A stretch of DNA of 64,000 nt, from the NCBI GenBank assembly GCA_951799425.1, contig OX637397.1, forward strand, positions 16,452,064-16,516,063, in the 5' to 3' direction. This stretch comes from Ilex aquifolium (taxonomy: Eukaryota; Streptophyta; Magnoliopsida; Aquifoliales; Aquifoliaceae). Position numbers and translations under genes: made by a program. Positions 24,283 to 61,533 of the stretch are shown here, in pieces. The notes under the pieces were generated by a model that saw only the letters and a list, made by a program, of their open reading frames with translations, was not told the origin of the DNA and did not search any database. Positions within the stretch are counted from its first letter, which is position 1. Each line of letters begins with the position of its first letter.

Positions 24283-27205
24283 TGTGACACCCCAAAATCC
24301 GGGGGTCCGTTGATTACCCATCAACCCGCGGAATACCTGTAGATACCTAGTATCTCGATATCACACTGTTATGCCCCATTTATCGGGGTCCATAACTTAA
24401 CGAAATTTGGGCAGAGTCTCCTTTGTATGGGGAGCTCTACCCAATACCCAACCTGTGCAATACACAATTACCAGATCCATCCGAGGTCAAATATAAAGCA
24501 AAGGCCGCATCGGGTCCATGTATAAGTAAACATTGGCCACACTGGGTCCAATTAACCATACTTAAATCAAAACATGAAAGGCTAATCTAACAATAGTCTT
24601 TATAAGTTCTATTACAATTATTTTACGCATTACATGCCCCAAAATATAGTTTCTAACATGTAATTACACAAAACATTAAGTAAAGCCACATGCGGCTTTC
24701 TTCAAGCATGAGGGTCCAAAATGGAGCCATCCGCCGGTGTATCTCTCCCACCTGAAATGTGTTCCCGTATAGGGTGAGCCAACGCCCAGTAGAGTATTTC
24801 CTACAGAGGCTACTCCTCAACCTATATGCATATGAAATGTTCACATGCAACATCAATAAATCCGTAACCATTCCATCAAATAATATACAATTAAATGATG
24901 TAATGCTATAATGTCATGCCATGAATGAGGTGAGACTCACCCATGTGCACTCAACCCGAGTCCACTCTGACTCCCTTTATATGTCAATGCCATGTATGTT
25001 AAACCGGGCTACCTAAGCCCCATGAAATGAGATGAGACTCATGTACTCAACCCGAGCCCTTCCCGGCTCCTTTCCCCCATGCAATGTCATGAGTATAAAA
25101 ACCGGACTTCTCAAGCCCCCGCCATTGGTATTACTCACCCAATAACTAATTTAAGAAAATCTCCGGGTCTTTCTTTGGGGTGGGCGTTTATGGACTTCCA
25201 CCAACGGAACCCAACCGACACGGGATTTATGGACTCTTTCCACCAACGGTGCCGCGTACACCAACACACTTTATGGGCTCTTATACCAACGGAAGTGCGT
25301 ATCCGAAACACCGGGCCTTGCACCCGAGAGGTCGTCTTGCCCCTTCTTGCTAACCCCGACCCAATCTTTTTCTTCTTTTTCATGCAACCATGCGACTCAG
25401 TTGAATAATCAATCCAACTTTCCCGAGCCCATCCACCAACCACCAAGCATGATGATTGATATATGCAACTACCCCCCCACACTCATGCAAGTTTCCCATG
25501 AATGTGACATCACCTTATGCCCAATATGTCATGAATGCCAATGAGCAATTTATCTCCATATTAGACTCCCATAATACCACATAGCTTGTGGTACAAACAC
25601 CCATGCACAACATCATTATGACACAATGTCCATGTATGTGATGTTCCCGTACATATGCAATGTAATGACCCATTGCTTCTCTCATGCAAGGTTCATATGT
25701 AATGAATGCCATATGAACTGTCTCTACCACATTCCAACATATGGTATTAACAACAACCATGCACACACACACACCACTCATGATGTGAATTCCCCGTGCA
25801 TATGCAATGCGATGTATCATTGCAATAAAATTATGTCACATATGTAATGCATGCCATATGGACTAAATTAACATAATCAATTCCATTCCATGGCAATTTA
25901 CATTATAAACGTGTAAATTCCATGCTTCATCACAACAATTGATATATCAAAATATATATCTGACATTCACAATTTCAACATAAATCATATCGTACACATA
26001 TGATTTTCATTTACCACATAAGACATAACATGTTATTTATCATATAACAATTTCAGTCCATTTAGGTATTTTGTCAAACACCTTCAAGGCAAACAACATG
26101 GTAACACATATCATGCCCAATTTCCACATAATTCAAGAAATTCCAATAAGCAATTTCTACATACCAATTTAGGATAAAATTATTTTACCTAAATTCCACC
26201 AATAGGCAAGTGTAATTTTCTAACAACCTACCCACCATCTTCATTATTCCATAACCATATACATATAAATATATGTATACATAGGTCAATATATATATAT
26301 ATATATATATATATCCAGCCCATTTATCATAGGCATTTCTAGGTAAGAAATCAACCCAAGTAGGAGAACCCCTACCTCTTGTAGCGTGAGAATCCCGTAG
26401 GAAGCTCCCAAGACCCGAAAATCCAACTCGAAGCTTGATTTTTCCAAATCCCGATTTTTCACCTTCGGTGAAAATCTTCATTTTTGGTACCCACGCGTAG
26501 CCCTAGTCGACGTGATCACTTCTCCCTTCTAGCTCGACGGAATCCGAGTAAAGAAATACAACTCGAATCTTGTTTTTCGTACACCCCCACCCGTTCACCT
26601 TCGGTGAAACTTGTTGTTTTTGGTACTCACGCGTAGCCCTCGTCGCGTAGATGAACTTTGCCTTTTGAATCGACGAATTCCGACGGACGGAACTCCCGGA
26701 ATCGGATCGGGAAGGTTGAAGAATTTTTTTCTTTTCTCTTTGGTCTTGGCCGGCTGGTTTCAGTCAAGAAGGAGATATTTCTTTCCTCAAAAAGCTGATT
26801 TAAGAGGGTATATATAGGCAAAAATGTGCGGTCCACATCGCACCACATATTTTCGACTTCCGGGTCCGTTTTTCGTCCCGAAACGATTCATTATACTTCG
26901 GATTAAGTTCAAATTAATTTTATTTGAACTTTAACTTAATTTGAAGGAAATTTTATAAAATACATTATTGGGGACCTTTAAAATGTCATTCGCCACGCAG
27001 TCGCCTCGAACGACGTGCAAAAATTCGACTATCTCGGAATTCGACGAAATTTCTAGTGATTACTAGATTTCGCGTTGCGAATCCAATGGCGCACTCCGTT
27101 TCCTCATCCGAGGTCTAGAACATGATTATTTCAAATACGCATAAGGGTGGAGAATTACCATTTTGCCCTTTTTCAGAAAAAGTTCAAATTTTCCCGGGTT
27201 TTACA
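24283..27205 (-). mobile_element. Gypsy (Tekay/Del-type) solo LTR nested in the Copia element
   Basis: The 2923-bp insert starts TGTGACACCCC, ends GGGTTTTACA and is flanked by the perfect 5-bp duplication GTCAG (24278-24282 and 27206-27210). Both ends and many internal blocks match the LTRs of the chromovirus at 34362-46626, in the same orientation, and the partial LTR at 60103-61533. With no internal region it is a solo LTR, the usual product of recombination between two LTRs. It is longer than the 2289-bp LTR of the complete element, so it belongs to a related subfamily. It contains a (TA)n run at about 26290-26315. Confidence 0.85.
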
Positions 27206-29956: not shown

Positions 29957-32751
29957 CACTGCAACAAAAATCGTTTTTTGCGACAATTTTTTTCGTCGCT
30001 AAATTAAAAAAATCGTTACCAATTATTTTTTGCGACGTTTTTTTTCATCCCGTGTTCGTTGCAATAGCCTTGTCGCATAAAGTTTTTTGCGACGCAATTT
30101 TATTTTCATCATAAAAAAAATTTTGCGGCGAAAAAAAAACGTCGCTAAAAGTTTAAAAAACGTAGCTAAAATCTATTCCACCAGTGTAAAAATAATAATT
30201 TAATTAATTTTTCACAACGTAAAAAAATCGTTGCAAATAACTTTTTACGTGAATAAAAAATGTAAAAAATAATAATTCAATTAATTTTTCGCGACGCAGA
30301 CAAATCGTCGCAAATAAATTTTTCAAAAATAAAAAATGTAAAAAAATAATAATTTAATTATTTTTTCGTGATGTAAAAAAATCGTCGCAAATAAATTTTT
30401 ACATAAATAATATCTGAATCCCCAATTTCTCAAACTGCCTCGACAAAACCTTAATCTCCGTAAATTCTCATCCAATTTCTCACTCCTCTCCACTAGATTA
30501 GCTAGCCCTAGAACCACTCGGCCTCGAAAAATCCAAAGAAATTCTCCTCCACTACCTTCTCCTAATCACAGCCCCAATCAAAACGATCTGGTTCGAGATG
30601 GAGGGCAGGAAACACTCTGGTTCGCAGGGGGAGGGGAACAGAGAAAATAGCAAGGAAGAGAGAGAGAAAGGGAGAGAGAGAGAGAGTATTGTGTGTGTTG
30701 ACTGAAATAAACAAAGAGGGAGAGATGGGGAAAGTGAGAATGAGGGAAAAAAGGATGGGCAATGGATCTCGATTTAGTTAGGTAGGTTTTTTTTTTTTTT
30801 TTTTAAATGTCCAAAACGACGTCGTTTTGAATTTTTTAAAAATTATATTCTGCGACAAACACAAAACGTCGCAATTTAATATTTTTATTTTATTTTAACT
30901 TTAAATGTGGTTGTAATTTATATTTTGCGACGAAAATAAAAATGTCACTAATTAATTTTTTCTTTTATTTTATTTTAATTTTTATTATTTATTTTTGAGA
31001 CTAAAAAATTTTGTCGTAAAAAATATTTTCAATTCCCGCTATCGCTCGCGCCAAATCATAGGGAGGGAATCATAATTTTTTACGACGTAATTAAAAAATG
31101 CCCCGAAAAATTACTATAATATTTATTTGTCACAAAATTATAAAATCCTCGCAGATAGTATTATTTTGCGACGTTTTCACATTCATCGCAAAAAATGATT
31201 TTCTGCGACGAACTTATAAAAAAGTCGCGAATTAATATTTTATTTTATTTTACACTAATAACTAAAATTTATATTCTGCGACAAAAAACATAAAACGTCG
31301 TGAATTAAATATTTTGACTTTATTTTAATTTTAATTTTAGATTATTTATTTTTGCGACGAATTAAAAATATCTGCGACGACAAATTTTTGTCCTGAAAAA
31401 TTATCAATTCCCGCCATTTCTCGCGCCAAAAAAAATTAGGAGGGAATCACCTTTTCGCGACGTATTTAAAAAAAGTCGCAAAACAATTGCCAAAATAGAA
31501 ATTTGCGACAAAATTATAAAATCATCGCGAATAGTACATTTTTTGTGACGACAATAAAAACGTCGCTAATTAAAATTTATTTTATTTTATTATATTTTTT
31601 TATTATTTAATTTGCGACAAAAAAATTTTGTCGTAAAATTTTTTTTCATTTGGAAGGAATCACATTATTTGAGGCGGAAATAAAAAACGTTGCGAAAAAA
31701 ATTACCATAATAATTATTTGCGACAACATTATCAAATCCTTGCAGATATTATATTTTTGGCGACGAAAATAATAACGTCGCAAAAAATTATTTTTGTAAA
31801 TTAATATTTTTATTTTATTTTTACTTTGACTCTTACTGAAAACTAAATTTTTATTATGCGACGAAAAATTAAACGTCGCGAATTAAATATTTAGAATTTA
31901 TTTTACTTTAAATTTTAGATTATTTATTTTTGCGACGAAAATAAAAACGTCACGAATTAAATTTTTATTTTATTTTATTTTATTTTAATTTTTGATTATT
32001 TAATTTGTGACAAAAAAATTTTTTCATAAAAAAAAATTTCATTTGGAGGGAATCACATTATTTGCGACGGAAATAAAAACCGTCGCGAAAAAAATTAACA
32101 TAATAATTATTTGCGACAAAATTATCAAATGCTCGCAAATATTATATTTTTGGCAACGAAAATAATAACGTCGCAAAAAATGATTTTTGTAAATTAATAT
32201 TTTTATTTTATTTTTACTTTAACTGTTGCTGAAAACTAAATTTTTATTCTGCAACGAAAAATTAAACGTCGCGAATTTAATATTTAGAATTTATTTTACT
32301 TTAAATTTTAGATTATTTATTTTTGCGACGAGATAAAACTATTTGCGACGAAACAGTTTTGTCGTAAAAAATGTCAATACCCACCATTTCTCTTGCCAAA
32401 AATAATTATGAGGGAATTTTCTTTTCGCGACGTATTTAAAAAAACGTCGCAAAAAAAGTGCTAAAATAGAAATTTAGACTTTATTTTACTTTAAATTTTA
32501 GATTATTTATTTTTGCGACGAGATAAAATTATTTGCGAGGAAAAAATTTTGTCCTAAAAAATTGCCCACTCCTGCCCTTTCTCCCGCAAAAAACAATTAG
32601 GAGGGAATCGCCTTTTCGCGATGTATTTAAAAAAACGTGGCAAAAAAATTGCCAAAATAGAAATTTGCGACAAAATTATAAAATCGTCGCGAATAGTAAA
32701 TTTTTTGCGACAAATTTAAAATCGTCGCAAAAAATACTTTTTGTTGTAGTA
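29957..32751. mobile_element. Non-autonomous CACTA-like element with dense GCGACG/CGTCGC repeats
   Basis: The left end reads CACTGCAACAAAAATCG and the reverse complement of the right end TACTACAACAAAAAGTA, matching the CACTACAA terminus of plant CACTA elements. Most of the 2.8 kb is made of GCGACG/CGTCGC motifs in both orientations in AT-rich sequence, as in CACTA subterminal regions, where transposase binds. Part is an approximate tandem duplication of about 380 bases (31663-32043 against 32044-32330). No transposase is present. At 30400-30780 an insert with normal base composition, including (GA)n, may be a captured fragment. The 3-bp target duplication is not clean (TTA against TAA), so the superfamily call is probable, not certain. 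Confidence 0.6.
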
Positions 32752-34356
32752 TAAGCCTGCCCAAAACCTTCTAGTTTGGCTCCAAACTATTTGAGATGAG
32801 CTGATGTTGGCTTTGGAATGTAATGAGCTCGACTATACTTTCTCTCAAGAAAAAAAATCATATAAATACTCGATGTTACAATGTACCATAGTGTTAGATT
32901 TCGAAAAAAAACTCCTCTCATTGGTTTATCTATAGCGCATTTCTACAAGCTAGCTATTATAAACATTATGAAATGAACCAAGATTTGAATGTCGATTGTC
33001 TCCTTTTAAATAGAGTCTTTTCTATGGATTTGACATCAAAGGGGACTCGAGATGGTTCAAATCCTCGAAAAAGGGTACCAATTAACTTGGGGCTTTGTGT
33101 ATAATTAGACCAAAAAATTCTTGGACATAATACCTAGTAAAATCTCAAAATGGAGTCATCAACTTCATTCCCTTTTCTTTTAAGGTTTCTGGTTTTTAAT
33201 TCTAGGCCAGAAAAGATTAGTTTAGAAAGAATTTCATATTTTCCCATTGTTAGAAGTAGATTATAATTACTTTTTGCCCACTCCACAAATGGTAGAATTT
33301 AAACCATAGTGTGCTCTTACGGTAGTTCCAACTTTACTTGGATGTTGCATTGCAAGGGGTGAGATATTTCCATTTGATTTTGACATTTCAAGTTGTCTTT
33401 TTTAAAAGACCACATATGAAATGAAATAAAACTGATGATGTTCTAAATATGATTAAGCAGTGATGAGAATGTAAAGTGCGCTGAACAGTTATGTTTAGTT
33501 CAGTCTGAGCTCCAAGGTTCTTAGTAATAGGATCTGGGGAAAGGGGTAATCACACAGAGTGTTTATAGTGGTTCACCAACTCGGGAGCTCGGCTAATCCA
33601 CTCTCAAGGGAGTCTCTTGCTCCTGGAGATATTGATAACAGGATAATTTACAGAAAGTATTTTAGTGAGGTTACAATTGCTTGTTGTTTATGTCGAGGCT
33701 TTGCCTCATATTTATAGTTATCCCTGGGTCTAGCTTGATCTGAGGCGAGATCCTTGCCCCTGCCTTGTAACGGTCGCCCTTATTGCGCAACGGCTGTGGA
33801 AGGTGTTGGGGCGGTTACGAGACTTGCGTCTGCTAAGTAACTGTTGCTACAAAGGGGGTACTTAGTGGAATCCAACTGTCCTCTGCACAGCCTTCCTTGA
33901 GATGCAGACACAAGGAGTTTGAGTCTGAAGTCGAGGTCTGCATATAACATAAATGAGCTGAGCTCCCGACCTAAGTGAGCATGACCTGCATTACCGAGCT
34001 CAACCTTGGGCATATTCGTTGTACAATCATTTTCCATTGAATATGTAACAAAATTGGGGCAATATGAAACTGATCACTTAGTTGAGAATAAGATATAAAA
34101 AATATGACAGTTGAGTGGGCAAAGTGAAAAAAAAGATGGTAGTTGAGAAGTCCAAGTGTAATTTGCCCTTTTTATGGAGAAATGTATATGAGATATGAAC
34201 CCATCCACAGATAAGTTTGATGCTGTTCATGTCAAAACTATGCTTCATGTCTGATATTGTCCTCTCAATTATCACAATTTTTCGAATTGTACAACCAACT
34301 ATGATTGTTGGATACAATTATTTATTACCTTTTTACGAAATGTTTCTCATGTTACA
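32752..34356. other. Spacer with an LTR-like block
   Basis: No gene is recognised. From about 33460 to 34040 the sequence has higher GC content and resembles a minus-strand LTR leader, with TATAAATATGAGGC on the minus strand near 33710 and a phrase like GTGGTTCACCAACTCGGG near 33570. The borders could not be fixed. Confidence 0.35.
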
Positions 34357-34670
34357 ATTATTGTGACGCCCCAATTTTCCGGGGGTCTTTTATTCACCGT
34401 TGATAAACCCATCAACCCGCGGAAATACCCGTGAATGTCACTTAACCCGACACCAAGTCACCACATTCCCTTTACCGGGACTTATAATTATATGTGAAAG
34501 AATCCCAAGTCTAACTTCTTTTGGTTGGTTGACCCATCCGAGGTCCAATATGCCACCATTGGTATCCTATTATTGTTCATTTATAACCTTTAAAGGAAGG
34601 AAACAATAGCCCAAGGGTTTGGCAAAAAAAGAAAAAAAAATTAAAATTTCAGAAAATTTTGGAGGGCGTA

Positions 34671-37306
34671 TGATTAGCACTCAAAAGTAGCATATTGTTA
34701 TGCTCTTTTTGGACTAATTATACTTTGATGGAGTTTAAATGATGATATTTTAGGTTCTAAAGTGAAGGAAAGTCCAAAGGCATCCAAGAAGTACATCTGA
34801 GGGACAAATGCCGAATTAACGCAAGACCAAGGGAGCAATGTCAGGAGAATGCAAAGAATGAAGGACAAAGTGTAATAAATGAAGGACAAAGTGTAATAAA
34901 AGCATTTGAAAAATCAGCATGCAAAGCACCACCGTTCACTTGCCCACTTGCCCACTTGCCCACTTGCCTTCCCAAGCCTATAAATAGGCAGCTCTTCTTC
35001 AGCTTTAAAAAGGCCAAACCTGAGGGAGAAATTAAGAGAGTATTTTTTTAGAGAGTTTTTAGAGAGCAAAATTTCTTTCATCTTTTGTAGTTTCCATTTC
35101 AATTCATGTATTGAAGATTTTATGCTTATGTTCTTATGGTAAGAGTTCTTTCTTATAATTGTCATTTCTTTATAGCTTTTATATTTACTTGCTTATATAA
35201 ATATAATGGAAGGCTGAGCCTCCTCTACTAAGTGTTTTCTTTTATGTTTTTATTATATCTTGGTTGTGAATTAAACACCAAGTAGTTAGTGTTTTTCTTT
35301 TATGTATTTTTATCTCTTGGTTGTGAATTAAACACCAAGTAATTATTGCTTTCTTTTAATTTAAGTATTGTTTTCTTTTACTTCCATTGTTGGAGCTTCC
35401 TTCTTCCCCTTAGAGGAGTGAAACTCTTCCACCTTTTTAGTGCTTTACCAAAGTCGGGAAGGGTGGAACGTGATTCACTTGTTCTTTGTCGAAGAACGAC
35501 TCCTTGTTTAGATATTTTACTTTAGAGTATTTTACTTTGTAACACCTTTTGGGGATGAGTACTATTCATCATTCTAGCTTTACCATAGCTATGAAGGGTG
35601 AGTAGTCCTCATTCACTCTTTGGGAAGGGATGATAGATATGTAAAAGATTAATCCGGACATTATGTTTGTGTATCACCTTTATGCTTAAATGTTCTATAC
35701 TCCACTTGATTTTTGGGTGATTGAATGCACCTAGCAAAGTAAAGGTACTTTGTATAATCAACGGATCTTTCTATGATAAATGGATGACTCCTACACGGAA
35801 AGATCCATTGATTCAAGGCAAGTACCCTAACTAACTCTTCATGACAAACTTTCAATGTCCACCATTATAGCACTTCATTCCTATCTTCCGATTAATTTGT
35901 CGTTGACACGGGAGTTAATTGAGTTATAAAGCATAAACATAATGCACCGGATAATCAACTACATATTCTGATTCCCGGACCAACGAGTGTTTGTTACATT
36001 TAATCATCTTATATGTAGTTGATTATCCGGTGCATTATGTTTATGCTTTATAACTCAATTAACTCCCGTGTCAACGACAAATTAATCGGAAGATAGGAAT
36101 GAAGTGCTATAATGGTGGACATTGAAAGTTTGTCATGAAGAGTTAGTTAGGGTACTTGCCTTGAATCAATGGATCTTTACGTGTAGGAGTCATCCATTTA
36201 TCATAGAAAGATCCGTTGATTATACAAAGTACCTTTACTTTGCTAGGTGCATTCAATCACCCAAAAATCAAGTGGAGTATAGAACATTTAAGCATAAAGG
36301 TGATACACAAACATAATGTCCGGATTAATCTTTTACATATCTATCATCCCTTCCCAAAGAGTGAATGAGGACTACTCACCCTTCATAGCTATGGTAAAGC
36401 TAGAATGATGAATAGTACTCATCCCCAAAAGGTGTTACAAAGTAAAATACTCTAAAGTAAAATATCTAAACAAGGAGTCGTTCTTCGACAAAGAACAAGT
36501 GAATCACGTTCCACCCTTCCCGACTTTGGTAAAGCACTAAAAAGGTGGAAGAGTTTCACTCCTCTAAGGGGAAGAAGGAAGCTCCAACAATGGAAGTAAA
36601 AGAAAACAATACTTAAATTAAAAGAAAGCAATAATTACTTGGTGTTTAATTCACAACCAAGAGATAAAAATACATAAAAGAAAAACACTAACTACTTGGT
36701 GTTTAATTCACAACCAAGATATAATAAAAACATAAAAGAAAACACTTAGTAGAGGAGGCTCAGCCTTCCATTATATTTATATAAGCAAGTAAATATAAAA
36801 GCTATAAAGAAATGACAATTATAAGAAAGAACTCTTACCATAAGAACATAAGCATAAAATCTTCAATACATGAATTGAAATGGAAACTACAAAAGATGAA
36901 AGAAATTTTGCTCTCTAAAAACTCTCTAAAAAAATACTCTCTTAATTTCTCCCTCAGGTTTGGCCTTTTTAAAGCTGAAGAAGAGCTGCCTATTTATAGG
37001 CTTGGGAAGGCAAGTGGGCAAGTGGGCAAGTGGGCAAGTGAACGGTGGTGCTTTGCATGCTGATTTTTCAAATGCTTTTATTACACTTTGTCCTTCATTT
37101 ATTACACTTTGTCCTTCATTCTTTGCATTCTCCTGACATTGCTCCCTTGGTCTTGCGTTAATTCGGCATTTGTCCCTCAGATGTACTTCTTGGATGCCTT
37201 TGGACTTTCCTTCACTTTAGAACCTAAAATATCATCATTTAAACTCCATCAAAGTATAATTAGTCCAAAAAGAGCATAACAATATGCTACTTTTGAGTGC
37301 TAATCA
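34671..37306. mobile_element. LTR-ended palindromic insertion (two 1296-bp inverted arms)
   Basis: Arms 34671-35966 and 36011-37306 are inverted copies of equal length; one mismatch was noticed (35798 against 36179). The spacer 35967-36010 is 44 bases. The insert starts TGATTAGCACTC, ends GAGTGCTAATCA and is bordered by GCGTA on both sides (34666-34670, 37307-37311), absent as a duplicate from the other LTR. TG/CA ends and a 5-bp duplication indicate LTR-type integrase. Each arm looks like the U3-R part of an LTR: a TATA box (CCTATAAATAGG) lies 307 bases in, at 34977-34988 and mirrored at about 36989-37000. The short open frames occur twice as mirror copies and resemble no known protein. Confidence 0.88.
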
Positions 37307-37308
37307 GC

Positions 37309-37394
37309 GTACCGGTACGGTATGCCCACTGGACCTCTGCGTACCGGTACGCTCCACCTTCTGGCTGTCGCCGTACCGGTACGCGTACCGGTAC
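37309..37394. repeat. GTACCGGTAC palindrome cluster in the 3' LTR
   Basis: Four perfect copies of the self-complementary decamer GTACCGGTAC start at 37309, 37341, 37373 and 37385, spaced 32, 32 and 12 bases. The first overlaps the right-hand copy of the target duplication of the palindromic insert. Confidence 0.9.
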
Positions 37395-39290
37395 GGTTCT
37401 GCCACTTTTGCCTTTTTCCTTTGTTTTTCACTTCCAATTCATTCAACACACAATCTTTTCCATCCAACACATATTTAATGAAGTTTTTCCCATAAAACAT
37501 GATACATATAAATTCTATTACAAACATTTATATGAATTTACATACCAAAACCAAGTTTTTATAATAATTTTACAAAAACTCAAAATAAAGCCACATTCCG
37601 ACTTTCTTCAACCTTGGGGCTCGAAATGGGAGCCGTCCACCGGTGTAAACCCAGCACCTGAAATATTTTTCCCACAAAGGGTGAGCCACGCTCAATAGGG
37701 TATCTCCTAATGAGACTACTCCCCAACCTATATGCATATGAAATGTTCACATGCCATAAAACAACAATTCATAACATCCCAAGCAAGGAAATATATTCAA
37801 TGATGGAATTTGCAATGCCATGCTATAGAATGAGGTGAGACCCACTCATGCATATCAACCGAGCCCTTCCCGGCTCCTCTACACATGCAAGTGTCAATGT
37901 GTACTAATCCGTCATTTATGTTGTACATCAAATGACATTTCATTCTAGGGTCTTTCTTGGGGTGGATATTTATGGACTTACACCAACGGCACCCAACCGA
38001 CACGGAATTCATGGACTTCCACCAACGGTTCCGCGTACACCGACACACTTTATGGACTCTTATACCAACGGAGTGCGTATCCAATCACCGGGTCTCTCAC
38101 CCGAGGGATAGTCTAGCCCTTCTTGCTACCCCAACCCTAACAACCGTGCAAACCGTGCGACTCGATTAGGTCATCGACCCATCTTACCCGAGCCCACTCG
38201 TCATCCACCATGCGTGGTGAAGACAACCACCATGCACACACACCCACTAAATGCGATGTTCCCGTGCATATGCAATGTGATGCTCCATTGCAACAATATT
38301 ATCATGTTCAATATGCTATGAGTAACACATGAACATTCTAATCACGTTTTACATATTTCATGGAAAAATATAAGCACATAGCATGTCCACAATTCACATA
38401 ATCCAAGAATTACATTAGGTCAATCCCATATACCCAATTCTAGAAATTTCATTTAAAAATTTCTAATTACCAATCCAATTAGAATTGATCTTTACCCATT
38501 TCAATACCCATTTCAACACATTACCAACAATAGGCAAGAGATATACAATCTATCATCCTACCCATTTCATAAAAACATCCTAGATTTGGAATAAACCTTA
38601 GTAGGAGGGAACCCTACTTCTTGTAGTGTGTAGAATCGTCGTGGGAAGCTCCTAGAACTCAAAGCAAGCTTCAATCCTCCACTTCCAACTTTTCGGCCTC
38701 CCAACGTTCGGTGAAAGCCGTCGTTTTTGGTACCCACGCGTAGCCCTCGACGAGGAGAACAACTTTTGTTTTTGGCCCGTGTGGATTTGAGCTCTCAATC
38801 TCCGTAGATCGTAGAGAGAAGATGGAGAACCCAAGCCCTTTCCCTCTCTTCCTCTCTCACGTTGATCGGCCGAACAAAATGGATTTTCTCCCCTTTAAAT
38901 ACTCTTTAAATACTTGGCCTACAACGCGCCACACGGCCCTTATTTCCCGGGTCCGTTTTAACCCCGAAACGATTAAATTTCGCTCCGGTTCAAGTTCAAA
39001 ATATTTTTATTTTAACTTGCCGTCATTTATTTCCCAAAATTTAAAATTTTATTCAGAATTTCGTTTTTGGGTCTCCCGAGGTCCGACCGCCTCGTAAAAC
39101 GCGAAAAATCCGATTAACTCGGAATTCAATGAAATTTAACAGGCTAACTAGATTTCGCGAGACGAATCCAACGGTGATGTTCGTTTCGTCATCCGAGCTC
39201 TAGAAAAATTCAGGTTTACAACCTGTACCATAGTGGCAAATTACATTTTTGCCCTTTTTCGCAAAAGTTCAAATTTTCTCGGGTTTTACA

Positions 39291-44337: not shown

Positions 44338-46626
44338 TGTGACGCCCCAATTTTTCGGGGGTCTTTTATTCACCGTTGATAAACCCATCAACCCGCGGAA
44401 ATACCGGTGAATGTCACTTAACCCGACACCACGTCACCACATTCCCTTTACCGGGACTTATAATTATATGTGAAAGAATCCCAAGTCTAACTTCTTTTGG
44501 TTGGTTGACCCATCCGAGGTCCAATATGCCACCATTGGTATCCTATTATTGTTCATTTATAACCTTTAAAGGAAGGAAACAATAGCCCAAGGGTTTGGCA
44601 AAAAAAGAAAAAAAAAATTAAAATTTCAGAAAATTTTGGAGGGCGTACCGGTACGGTATGCCCACTGGACCTCTGCGTACCGGTACGCGTACCGGTACGC
44701 TCCACCTTCTGGCTGTCGCCGTACCGGTACGGTTCTGCCACTTTTGCCTTTTTCCTTTGTTTTTCACTTCCAATCCATTCAACACACAATCTTTTCCATC
44801 CAACACATATTTAATGAAGTTTTTCCCATAAAACATGATACATATAAATTCTATTACAAACATTTATATGAATTTACATACCAAAACCAAGTTTTTATAA
44901 TAATTTTACAAAAACTCAAAATAAAGCCACATTCCGACTTTCTTCAACCTTGGGGCTCGAAATGGGAGCCGTCCGCCGGTGTAAACCTAGCACCTGAAAT
45001 ATTTTTCCCACAAAGGGTGAGCCACGCTCAATAGGGTATCTCCTAATGAGACTACTCCCCAACCTATATGCATATGAAATGTTCACATGCCATAAAACAA
45101 CAATTCATAACATCCCAAGCAAGGAAATATATTCAATGATGGAATTTGCAATGCCATGCTATGGAATGAGGTGAGACCCACTCATGCATATCAACCGAGC
45201 CCTTCCCGGCTCCTCTACACATGCAAGTGCCAATGTGTACTAATCCGTCATTTATGTTGTACATCAAATGACATTTCATTCTAGGGTCTTTCTTGGGGTG
45301 GATATTTATGGACTTACACCAACGGCACCCAACCGACACGGAATTCATGGACTTCCACCAACGGTTCCGCGTACACTGACACACTTTATGGACTCTTATA
45401 CCAACGGAGTGCGTATCCAATCACCGGGTCTCTCACCCGAGGGATAGTCTAGCCCTTCTTGCTACCCCAACCCTAACAACCGTGCAAACCGTGCGACTCG
45501 ATTAGGTCATCGACCCATCTTACCCGAGCCCACTCGTCATCCACCAAGCGTGGTGAAGACAACCACCATGCACACACACCCACTAAATGCGATGTTCCCG
45601 TGCATATGCAATGTGATGCTCCATTGCAACAATATTATCATGTTCAATATGCTATGAGTAACACATGAACATTCTAATCACGTTTTACATATTTCATGGA
45701 AAAATATAACCACATAGCATGCCCACAATTCACATAATCCAAGAATTACATTAGGTCAATCCCATATACCCAATTCTAGAAATTTCATTTAAAAATTTCT
45801 AATTACCAATCCAATTAGAATTGATCTTTACCCATTTCAATACCCATTTCAACACATTACCAACAATAGGCAAGAGATATACAATCTATCATCCTACCCA
45901 TTTCATAAAAACATCCTAGGTTTGGAATAAACCTTAGTAGGAGGGAACCCTACTTCTTGTAGCGTGTAGAATCGTCGTGGGAAGCTCCTAGAACTCAAAG
46001 CAAGCTTCAATCCTCCACTTCCAACTTTTCGGCCTCCCAACGTTCGGTGAAAGCCGTCGTTTTTGGTACCCACGCGTAGCCCTCGACGAGGAGAACAACT
46101 TTTGTTCTTGGCCCGTGTGGATTTGAGCTCTCAATCTCCGTAGATCGTAGAGAGAAGATGGAGAACCCAAGCTCTTTCCCTCTCTTCCTCTCTCACGTTG
46201 ATCGGCCGAACAAAATGGATTTTCTCCCCTTTAAATACTCTTTAAATACTTGGCCTACAACGCGCCACACGGCCCTTATTTCCCGGGTCCGTTTTAACCC
46301 CGAAACGATTAAATTTCGCTCCGGTTCAAGTTCAAAATATTTTTATTTTAACTTGCCGTCATTTATTTCCCAAAATTTAAAATTTTATTCAGAATTTCGT
46401 TTTTGGGTCTCCCGAGGTCCGACCGCCTCGTAAAACGCGAAAAATCCGATTAACTCGGAATTCAATGAAATTTAACAGGCTAAGTAGATTTCGCGAGACG
46501 AATCCAAAGGTGATGTCCGTTTCGTCATCCGAGCTGTATAAAAATTCAGGTTTACAACCTGTACCATAGTGGCAAATTACATTTTTGCCCTTTTTCGCAA
46601 AAGTTCAAATTTTCTCGGGTTTTACA
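44338..46626 (-). repeat. 5' LTR of the chromovirus
   Basis: 2289 bases, uninterrupted, the reference for the enlarged left LTR. On the coding strand it starts TGTAAAACCC at 46626 and ends GGCGTCACA at 44338. A likely TATA box (GTATTTAAAG) lies near 46235-46245, followed by a leader. Three approximate repeats around ACCAACGG lie at about 45300-45410. Confidence 0.9.
44645..44730. repeat. GTACCGGTAC palindrome cluster in the 5' LTR
   Basis: Four perfect copies start at 44645, 44677, 44689 and 44721, spaced 32, 12 and 32 bases. The left LTR has the same number in a different order of spacings (32, 32, 12). Confidence 0.9.
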
Positions 46627-60102: not shown

Positions 60103-61533
60103 TGTGAAACCCCGGAAAATTTGAACTACTTACAAAGGGGCAAAACAATAACTTGCCACTATGAACGGGTTGCGAACCTGAATTTTTCTAGAGCTCGGAT
60201 GACGAAACGGACTTCGCCGTTGAATTCGTCTCGCGAAATCTAGTGACCATGTAAAATTTCATCAAATTCCGAAATAGTCGGATTTTTCACGTTTTACGAG
60301 ACAGTCGGGTCTCGGATGACCCCAAAAACGAATTTTTTATTAAAATTATAAAATTTTCTAATAATTGAATTAAAGTTCAAATAAAATTAATTTGAACTTA
60401 ATCCGAGGTATAATGAATCGTTTCGGGACGAAAAACGGACCCGAAAGTCGAAAATATGCGGTGCAATGTGGACCGCGCAATTAAAAGTATAAATAGGGGC
60501 TGAATATCTGAAAAATCAGATTTTTCAGCCCCTTTAGCTGGCTGTGTTCAGACGTTGAAGGGAGAGAGGAGAAAAATTTTGATCTCCAAGCTTCCCGCTC
60601 CGATTCCGGGAGTTCCGTCCGTCGGAATTCGTCGATTCAAAAGGCAAAGTTCATCTACGCGACGAGGCCTACGCGTGGGTACCAAAAACAATGGTTTTCA
60701 CCGAATGTGAAAAGATGGAAGTGTACGAAAATCAAGATTCGAGTTGTATTTCTTTGCTCGGATTCCGTCGAGCTAGAAGGGAGAAGTGATCACGTCGACG
60801 AAGGCTATGCGTGGGTACCAAAAACAACGAATTTCACCGAAGGTGAAATTTCGGGAGTTGGGAAAATCAAGCTTCGAGTTGGGTTTTCGGGTCTTGGGAG
60901 CTTCCTACGGGATTCTCACGCTACAAGAGGTAGGGGTTCTCCTACTTGGGTTGATTTCTTACCTAGAAATGCCTATGATAAATGGGCTGGATATATATAT
61001 ATATTGCCCTATGTATACATATATTTATATGTATATGGTTATGGAATAATGAGGTAAATGGGTAGTTTGTTAGAAAATTTCACTTGCCCATTGGTGGAAT
61101 TTAGGTAAAATGATTTTATCCTAAATGAGTATGTAGAAATTGCCTATTGGGATTTCTTGAATTATGTGAAAGCTACGTGAAAATTGGGCATCATATGTGT
61201 TACCATGTTGTTTGCCTTGAAGGTGTTTGATTAAATGTCTTGGTTGATGTAAATGTTGTTATTCGATGAAATTGAGATAACATGTTTAAGTGTGTTGAGG
61301 TACGTGAACTTATGCACTATGATATGCCAATATATGCTCTTTGATGTATTGACATGGTTAAGAAATATGGTAGTTATATGCTATTGATATAATTGCCATG
61401 AATTTGAACATGTGAAGTTGTGAATTAAATTGTCCATATGGCATTCATATCATATGGCACATGGCATGGATATGCAATGGTGCATTACATTGCATTGGCA
61501 TGGAATCATTTATTTCATGGGTGAGTGCATGGT
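60103..61533 (+). repeat. Partial Gypsy LTR, plus orientation
   Basis: It starts TGTGAAACCCCGG and is the inverse-orientation relative of the solo LTR at 24283-27205: CACGCGTAGCC-type blocks, ACGTGATCAC and the (TA)n block near 60992 all correspond. The 3' half is missing, cut by the element that begins at 61534. Confidence 0.7.

What the first reader, a model, noticed from the sequence alone, without database searches (positions are those of the whole stretch)
34671..37306. Near-perfect 2.6-kb palindrome inserted like an LTR retrotransposon
The sequence shows two 1296-bp arms of exactly equal length, one mismatch noticed, a 44-bp spacer, TG/CA ends and a 5-bp target duplication (GCGTA). LTR retrotransposons make such duplications, but their two ends are normally different (U3 and U5) and the LTRs are direct repeats. 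Here both ends are the same U3-like end. One inferred route is plus-strand strong-stop cDNA that folded back, primed itself and was copied into a palindrome, then integrated by its two identical ends. A conventional fold-back DNA transposon is the alternative.
Basis: partly seen in the sequence, partly recalled or inferred. Interest (0 to 1): 0.88.

Follow-up and report, generated by a model that had tools for sequence, protein, structure and literature searches.

The report
Back-to-back LTR palindrome, integrated U3-to-U3
A plant retrotransposon's DNA copy was joined tail-to-tail to itself and then inserted into the genome by its two identical ends; several other copies in the same genome carry similar inverted joins, so this looks like a recurrent by-product of its copying cycle.

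Summary
The palindrome is real: 34671-37306, two 1296-bp arms, one mismatch, 44-bp spacer, TG/CA ends, 5-bp duplication GCGTA. A sister repeat shows the empty site with one GCGTA at 44643-44647. The arm is not a whole LTR. It is bases 1-1296 of the ~1560-bp LTR of a ~13.5-kb Ty3/gypsy-type element found elsewhere in direct-repeat form. The spacer is the next 44 LTR bases. The sequence then turns back through a 4-bp microhomology, ATAT. Both outer ends are U3 ends.
Three more U3/U3 insertions were found among 185 U3 ends, plus two larger U5/U3 insertions with internal fold-backs. All six carry matching 5-bp outer duplications; an array on C7 yielded outward pairs without one. One insertion holds the LTR plus the 18-nt tRNA-Asp primer-binding site, breaking off 2 nt beyond it, near where plus-strand strong-stop DNA should end.
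Best reading: before integration, a plus-strand cDNA 3' end switched onto a plus strand (itself or a sister), and integrase used two U3 ends. Fold-back versus end-joining of cDNA pieces is unsettled. A DNA transposon, chromosomal rearrangement or assembly error fits poorly.

The parts
34666..34670 (.). 5-bp target-site duplication, left copy (GCGTA)
34671..35966 (+). left arm = LTR positions 1-1296, U3 end outermost
34979..34986 (+). TATAAATA, TATA-like box in U3 (promoter inferred); mirrored in the right arm, so both point inward
   Evidence: position; promoter role is inference
35967..36010 (+). 44-bp spacer = LTR positions 1297-1340, contiguous with the left arm
36011..36014 (.). turnaround: 4-bp microhomology ATAT shared by LTR 1341-1344 and the reverse complement of LTR 1293-1296
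36011..37306 (-). right arm = LTR positions 1296-1 in reverse complement, U3 end outermost
37307..37311 (.). 5-bp target-site duplication, right copy (GCGTA)
34362..39290 (.). target: 2.29-kb LTR-like repeat of an older element (starts TGTGACGCCCC), split by the insertion
44338..46626 (.). sister copy of that repeat; empty site with one GCGTA at 44643-44647

Best explanation
Inside the reverse-transcribing particle, a plus-strand DNA of this element, begun at the U3 tip, stopped in the downstream part of the LTR (position 1344 here). Its 3' end annealed through 3-4 bases to a plus-strand LTR, either its own (44-nt loop) or a sister's, and was extended back to that strand's U3 5' end. The product is a tail-to-tail LTR palindrome whose two outer ends are both U3 ends. 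After second-strand synthesis, integrase inserted it with a normal 5-bp target duplication. Shown: LTR identity, U3/U3 ends, target duplication, empty site, turnaround microhomology, parent element, and further separate insertions with inverted joins. Inferred: plus-strand identity of the switching strand, the RT-driven step, self versus sister template, and conversion of the hairpin into an integrable duplex.
For: Arm = LTR 1-1296 of direct-repeat elements; one parent copy's internal sequence has no match in the window. Turnaround at ATAT. Empty site. U3/U3 insertions at C17:7996095-7999611 (TSD TTGCA), C12:23196704-23211532 (GAGTG) and C15:17932046-17950422 (ATAAT), and complex U5/U3 insertions at C6 (GTGGT) and C4 (GAAAT): these five and the window copy all have matching 5-bp duplications at the outer ends. 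Joining two plus strands necessarily puts two U3 5' ends outside. C17 holds the full LTR plus the 18-nt PBS complementary to tRNA-Asp(GTC), then leaves the parental sequence after 2 more nt, close to the expected strong-stop end. C12 junction: 3-bp microhomology TGA, 68-nt loop. Short loops: if the two arm lengths were independent, a difference of <=48 (C7) or <=71 (C12) would have chance 0.06 or 0.09.
Against: The turnaround region is not unusually foldable as single-stranded DNA (z 0.78, 160 of 200 shuffles fold as well). C15's re-entry point lies 332 bp beyond the strand's own end, and C17 has an extra direct-orientation LTR piece with short filler at one junction and a blunt join at the other, so simple self-priming does not cover every case. 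In C12 and C15 the inverted copy runs on through PPT into the internal region, so that template was a longer plus strand, not strong-stop DNA. Outward U3 pairs in the C7 38.2-Mb array are not such insertions as far as tested; the nearest pair shares no duplication. The U5/U5 control has little power: none with a shared duplication found among 100 listed ends, out of 883. No sequencing reads could be checked.
Confidence: 0.65

Rival explanations
1. Two separate cDNA pieces, each broken in the LTR near its U3 end, were joined tail-to-tail by the host's microhomology end-joining before integration; integrase then used the two U3 ends.
For: 4- and 3-bp microhomologies at C7 and C12, 3 bp at C15; blunt join in C17, short filler at C17's other junction and at C6; C15 needs a second LTR template.
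Against: The C7 and C12 arms differ by only 48 and 71 bp (chance 0.06 and 0.09 each if independent). C17 breaks off 2 nt beyond the 18-nt PBS, close to a natural strong-stop end.
Confidence: 0.25
2. An ordinary LTR or element was integrated first and the palindrome arose later by chromosomal inversion or replication fold-back.
For: Such events make inverted repeats; C4 shows nested large palindromes.
Against: A later inverted duplication would not place a matching 5-bp duplication outside a second U3 end; the window, C17, C12 and C15 have one. The empty site for the window and uninterrupted copies of the C12 target sequence show clean insertions.
Confidence: 0.05
3. Assembly or library artefact: a read that folded back on itself.
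For: Palindromic reads are a known artefact (recalled); no reads could be inspected.
Against: An artefact would mirror the flanks too; here the mirror stops exactly at the LTR tips, different flanks follow, and a 5-bp duplication is present. C17, C12 and C15 end in the same way.
Confidence: 0.03
4. A conventional fold-back DNA transposon with long terminal inverted repeats.
For: Long, nearly perfect inverted repeats and a target duplication.
Against: The arm is the LTR of elements with LTRs in direct repeat; one copy read has gag, RT, RNase H and integrase domains, and PBS and PPT are present. The duplication length matches the parent's 5 bp (8 of 8 pairs).
Confidence: 0.01

Closest known systems
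Complex LTR-retrotransposon insertions by abnormal template switching (Sabot & Schulman 2007, PMC1950507; outline, section 3 part 1 of 2 and found passages seen)
   Same: Single insertions with 5-bp target duplications whose odd structure is laid to reverse-transcription template switching before integration.
   Different: The described cases have three LTRs and two internal regions. The words invert-, palindrom- and hairpin do not occur in the main text. Here the join is inverted and both ends are U3.
Solo LTR
   Same: Only LTR sequence, TG/CA ends, 5-bp duplication.
   Different: A solo LTR is one complete LTR with U3 and U5 ends; this is two truncated LTRs tail-to-tail without U5 ends.
Self-priming of retroviral strong-stop DNA (recalled; papers seen only in the search listing)
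   Same: A reverse-transcription intermediate that folds back and primes on itself.
   Different: As recalled it involves the minus strand and its R hairpin; here plus-strand sequence from the U3 tip, followed by integration.
Plus-strand strong-stop template switching inferred for HIV-1 proviruses with asymmetric LTRs (PMC9278108, passages seen)
   Same: Plus-strand strong-stop DNA switching to another template.
   Different: There it switches PBS to PBS on the co-packaged genome copy; 'palindrom' does not occur and the one 'inverted' is a laboratory step.
Mu killer of maize (PMC2563033, passages seen)
   Same: A natural inverted duplication derived from a transposon; its transcript forms a long hairpin that silences the family.
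   Different: It derives from a DNA transposon; for the present locus no transcript or siRNA has been looked at.

Membership tests
LTR retrotransposon insertion (derived, non-autonomous) | TG..CA ends and 5-bp target duplication like the parent's | tested here: met
   parent duplications 8 of 8 LTR pairs compared
LTR retrotransposon insertion (derived, non-autonomous) | Arm matches the LTR of elements with LTRs in direct repeat | tested here: met
LTR retrotransposon insertion (derived, non-autonomous) | Parent has gag, RT/RNase H, integrase, tRNA-primed PBS, PPT | tested here: met
   Pfam hits in one copy; PBS complementary to tRNA-Asp(GTC); PPT
Canonical LTR retrotransposon | One U3 end and one U5 end, LTRs in direct repeat with PBS and PPT between | tested here: not met
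   both ends U3, no internal sequence
Solo LTR | One complete LTR | tested here: not met
   LTR 1-1344 plus 1296-1 inverted; 1345-1560 absent
Template-switched complex insertion (Sabot & Schulman type) | Third, internal LTR and two core sequences | tested here: not met
Template-switched complex insertion (Sabot & Schulman type) | One outer target duplication round a cDNA rearranged before integration | tested here: met
Fold-back DNA transposon | Ends belong to a transposase-encoding DNA element | tested here: not met
Hairpin silencing locus (Mu killer type) | Transcribed into a long hairpin processed to siRNA | not testable with these tools
   no RNA data; only an inward-facing TATA-like box per arm seen

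The most novel reading that the evidence does not exclude
Plus-to-plus strand switching is a recurrent side pathway of this element's reverse transcription. It yields mobile U3/U3 palindromes that integrase accepts as readily as normal ends, and each insertion becomes a self-made inverted-repeat locus. Its inward-facing promoters would make a ~1-kb hairpin RNA that silences the family in trans, so the retrotransposon seeds its own Mu-killer-like repressors.
Probability: 0.2. Interest if true: 0.85.

Novelty: new variant of a known kind. Interest (0 to 1): 0.62.

Why it matters
It is genomic evidence that plant LTR-retrotransposon integration can use two U3 ends, and that inverted cDNAs form and integrate repeatedly. 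The junctions are fossils of reverse-transcription errors, making stall sites and strand-switch rules measurable. Perfect LTR palindromes are potential sources of hairpin RNA and possible sites of chromosome instability (inference). Annotation pipelines that look for direct repeats would probably miss them (inference).

Tried and rejected
DNA-transposon reading: rejected. Arm as a complete LTR: rejected, the LTR is about 1560 bp. My early idea (note) that the spacer itself held a PBS: rejected, it is ordinary LTR sequence. A strong pre-formed hairpin at the turnaround: not supported. C12 duplication as a PPT remnant: the C12 left flank ends GGGGAGTG like the family's PPT, but the joined flank sequence occurs uninterrupted at 4 other places with 1-2 mismatches and looks like another element's PPT/LTR junction (my reading), so GAGTG is taken as real. 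C7 38.2-Mb array: outward pairs 38206318/38215443 (9.1 kb; flanks share no 5 bp) and 38198413/38215443 (17.0 kb; flank not fetched) were dropped. U5/U5 control: among 100 listed ends of 883, 1 outward pair within 20 kb, no shared duplication; 2 pairs at 38 and 43 kb tested, none; three other pairs at 35-58 kb not tested; inconclusive. The G-variant PPT slice did not complete, so joined-type cases are under-counted. Literature searches (open PMC library only, several listings capped) listed no paper that I recognised as describing U3/U3 palindromic LTR insertions.

Full report
OBSERVATION. The window holds two arms, 34671-35966 and 36011-37306, 1296 bp each, one mismatch, 44 bp between them. 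They are flanked by GCGTA on both sides, and a sixth base does not match. The insertion lies in one of two 2.29-kb repeats (34362-39290 and 44338-46626; the main aligned stretch 98.2% identical). These look like the LTRs of an older element: both begin TGTGACGCCCC, and the outer flanks read ATTAT on each side (printout, read by eye). The uninterrupted copy carries one GCGTA at 44643-44647, a direct empty-site control. [quoted passage not shown]

WHAT THE ARM IS. A genome search (G000, 800 Mb, 103 contigs, unnamed) gave 41 scored matches out of 3263 first-look candidates, many in same-orientation pairs about 12 kb apart (counts are lower bounds). Eight such pairs align over 1552-1562 bp with 0-6 mismatches, so the true LTR is about 1560 bp, beginning TGATTAGCAC. 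All eight pairs carry 5-bp duplications (8 of 8). The 3' LTR is preceded by a purine-rich tract ending GGGG(G/A)GTG. The 5' LTR is followed by TGGCGCCGTTGCCGGGGA, the complement of the last 18 nt of mature tRNA-Asp (CCA added): two of 20 matching genomic sites were fetched and ARAGORN calls both tRNA-Asp(GTC). One copy encodes gag, RT, RNase H, integrase zinc finger and core, with integrase after RNase H, a Ty3/gypsy-type order.

ANATOMY OF THE TURNAROUND. The left half runs LTR 1-1344, then the sequence is the reverse complement of LTR 1296-1. The two overlap by ATAT. LTR 1345-1560 and, as far as one parent copy's internal sequence shows, PBS, PPT and the interior are absent. Both outer ends are therefore U3 tips. 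The region is not specially foldable.

OTHER COPIES. A 28-base U3-tip pattern with up to 3 mismatches occurs 429 times, 0 in the reversed control; 100 places were listed. To list those not preceded by the PPT I split an exact 21-mer by its 5' neighbour: A 35, T 57, C 58, (A/C/G)G 34, each listed in full (the combined C/T list showed 100 of 115). With the C12 end added, 185 ends were compared. Outward-facing pairs within 20 kb: the window; C17:7996095-7999611; C12:23196704-23211532; C15:17932046-17950422; and two pairs in a tandem array on C7 (38.2 Mb), of which the nearer shares no flank and the other was not tested. The first four each have a 5-bp duplication: GCGTA, TTGCA, GAGTG, ATAAT. Two complex insertions noticed's list end U5/U3 and contain internal fold-backs: C6:5926396-5941727 (GTGGT) and C4:13286117-13314040 (GAAAT).

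C17 is the most telling. In one orientation it reads full LTR (1585 bp in this copy), PBS, two further nt shared with some parental copies, 3-nt filler, a direct-orientation LTR piece (own positions 276-876), then inverted LTR from own position 1296 to 1, joined bluntly. It breaks off 2 nt past the 18-nt PBS, near the place where plus-strand strong-stop DNA should end (established model of retroviral reverse transcription; the stop at a modified tRNA base is recalled). C12 is a full element carrying an extra inverted LTR (own positions 1-1471, turning at 1400, TGA overlap) on its U5-truncated 3' LTR. C15 has the extra inverted LTR (own positions 1-1127, re-entering at 1459 of a 1720-bp LTR, AGA overlap) followed by tandem 3' LTR units. 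C6 turns at about own position 807 to 201 with a few filler bases.

MECHANISM. Two plus strands joined 3' end to 3' region always leave two plus-strand 5' ends outside, that is U3/U3. Two minus strands would leave U5/U5. Even numbers of switches give U5/U3, as in C6 and C4. The matching outer duplications place the rearrangements before integration, like the template-switch complexes of Sabot & Schulman, but inverted. Short loops at C7 and C12 favour self-priming; C15 requires a second LTR template. RT switching and host end-joining of cDNA pieces remain the two live options. The U5/U5 control is too weak to help: none found among 100 listed ends, from 883, and covering wider subfamilies.

CONSEQUENCE (inference). 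A TATA-like box in each arm points inward. A transcript starting in one arm would read into the other and fold into a ~1-kb hairpin. The maize Mu killer precedent makes this worth testing. No RNA evidence was available.

LIMITS. This does not change the reading or the odds.

Noticed in passing
L047:1694-2146 (G000 C17, inside the parent element between pol and the 3' LTR); related matches in L031, L034, L038, L039, L040, L041, L044: A 150-aa ORF matches Pfam Viral_NABP (E 1.5e-13) and Carla_C4 (1.1e-6), i.e. a carlavirus-type nucleic-acid-binding protein, carried inside an LTR retrotransposon; a second diverged match (69% aa) lies in the same stretch L047.
   Followed up: partly
G000 C4:13286117-13314040 (L034, L040, L041): A 28-kb insertion with TSD GAAAT made of nested palindromes of the same element; one palindromic stretch is ~14.7 kb long, 99.6% self-complementary.
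   Followed up: partly
G000 C15:17932046-17950422 (L049, L050): Besides the fold-back, 3' LTR plus PPT-adjacent internal fragments are repeated in tandem within one insertion.
   Followed up: partly
G000 C7:38182606-38215443 (L052, L053; part of the array fetched): Four U3 tips of the family at ~7.9-kb spacing in tandem, with LTRs head-to-head ~140 bp apart in the fetched parts and a final outward inverted U3 end.
   Followed up: partly
G000 C6:5926396-5930035 (L038): Two head-to-head LTRs of one insertion, both cut near U3 position 50, separated by 536 bp that is 91% identical to the element's own internal sequence.
   Followed up: partly
26068-26958 and 60165-61236: Two unrelated ~1-kb inverted repeats, matched pieces 76-92% alike, 33-35 kb apart.
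   Followed up: no
30188-32752: Diverged AT-rich direct repeats with spacings such as 77, 190 and 393 bp.
   Followed up: no
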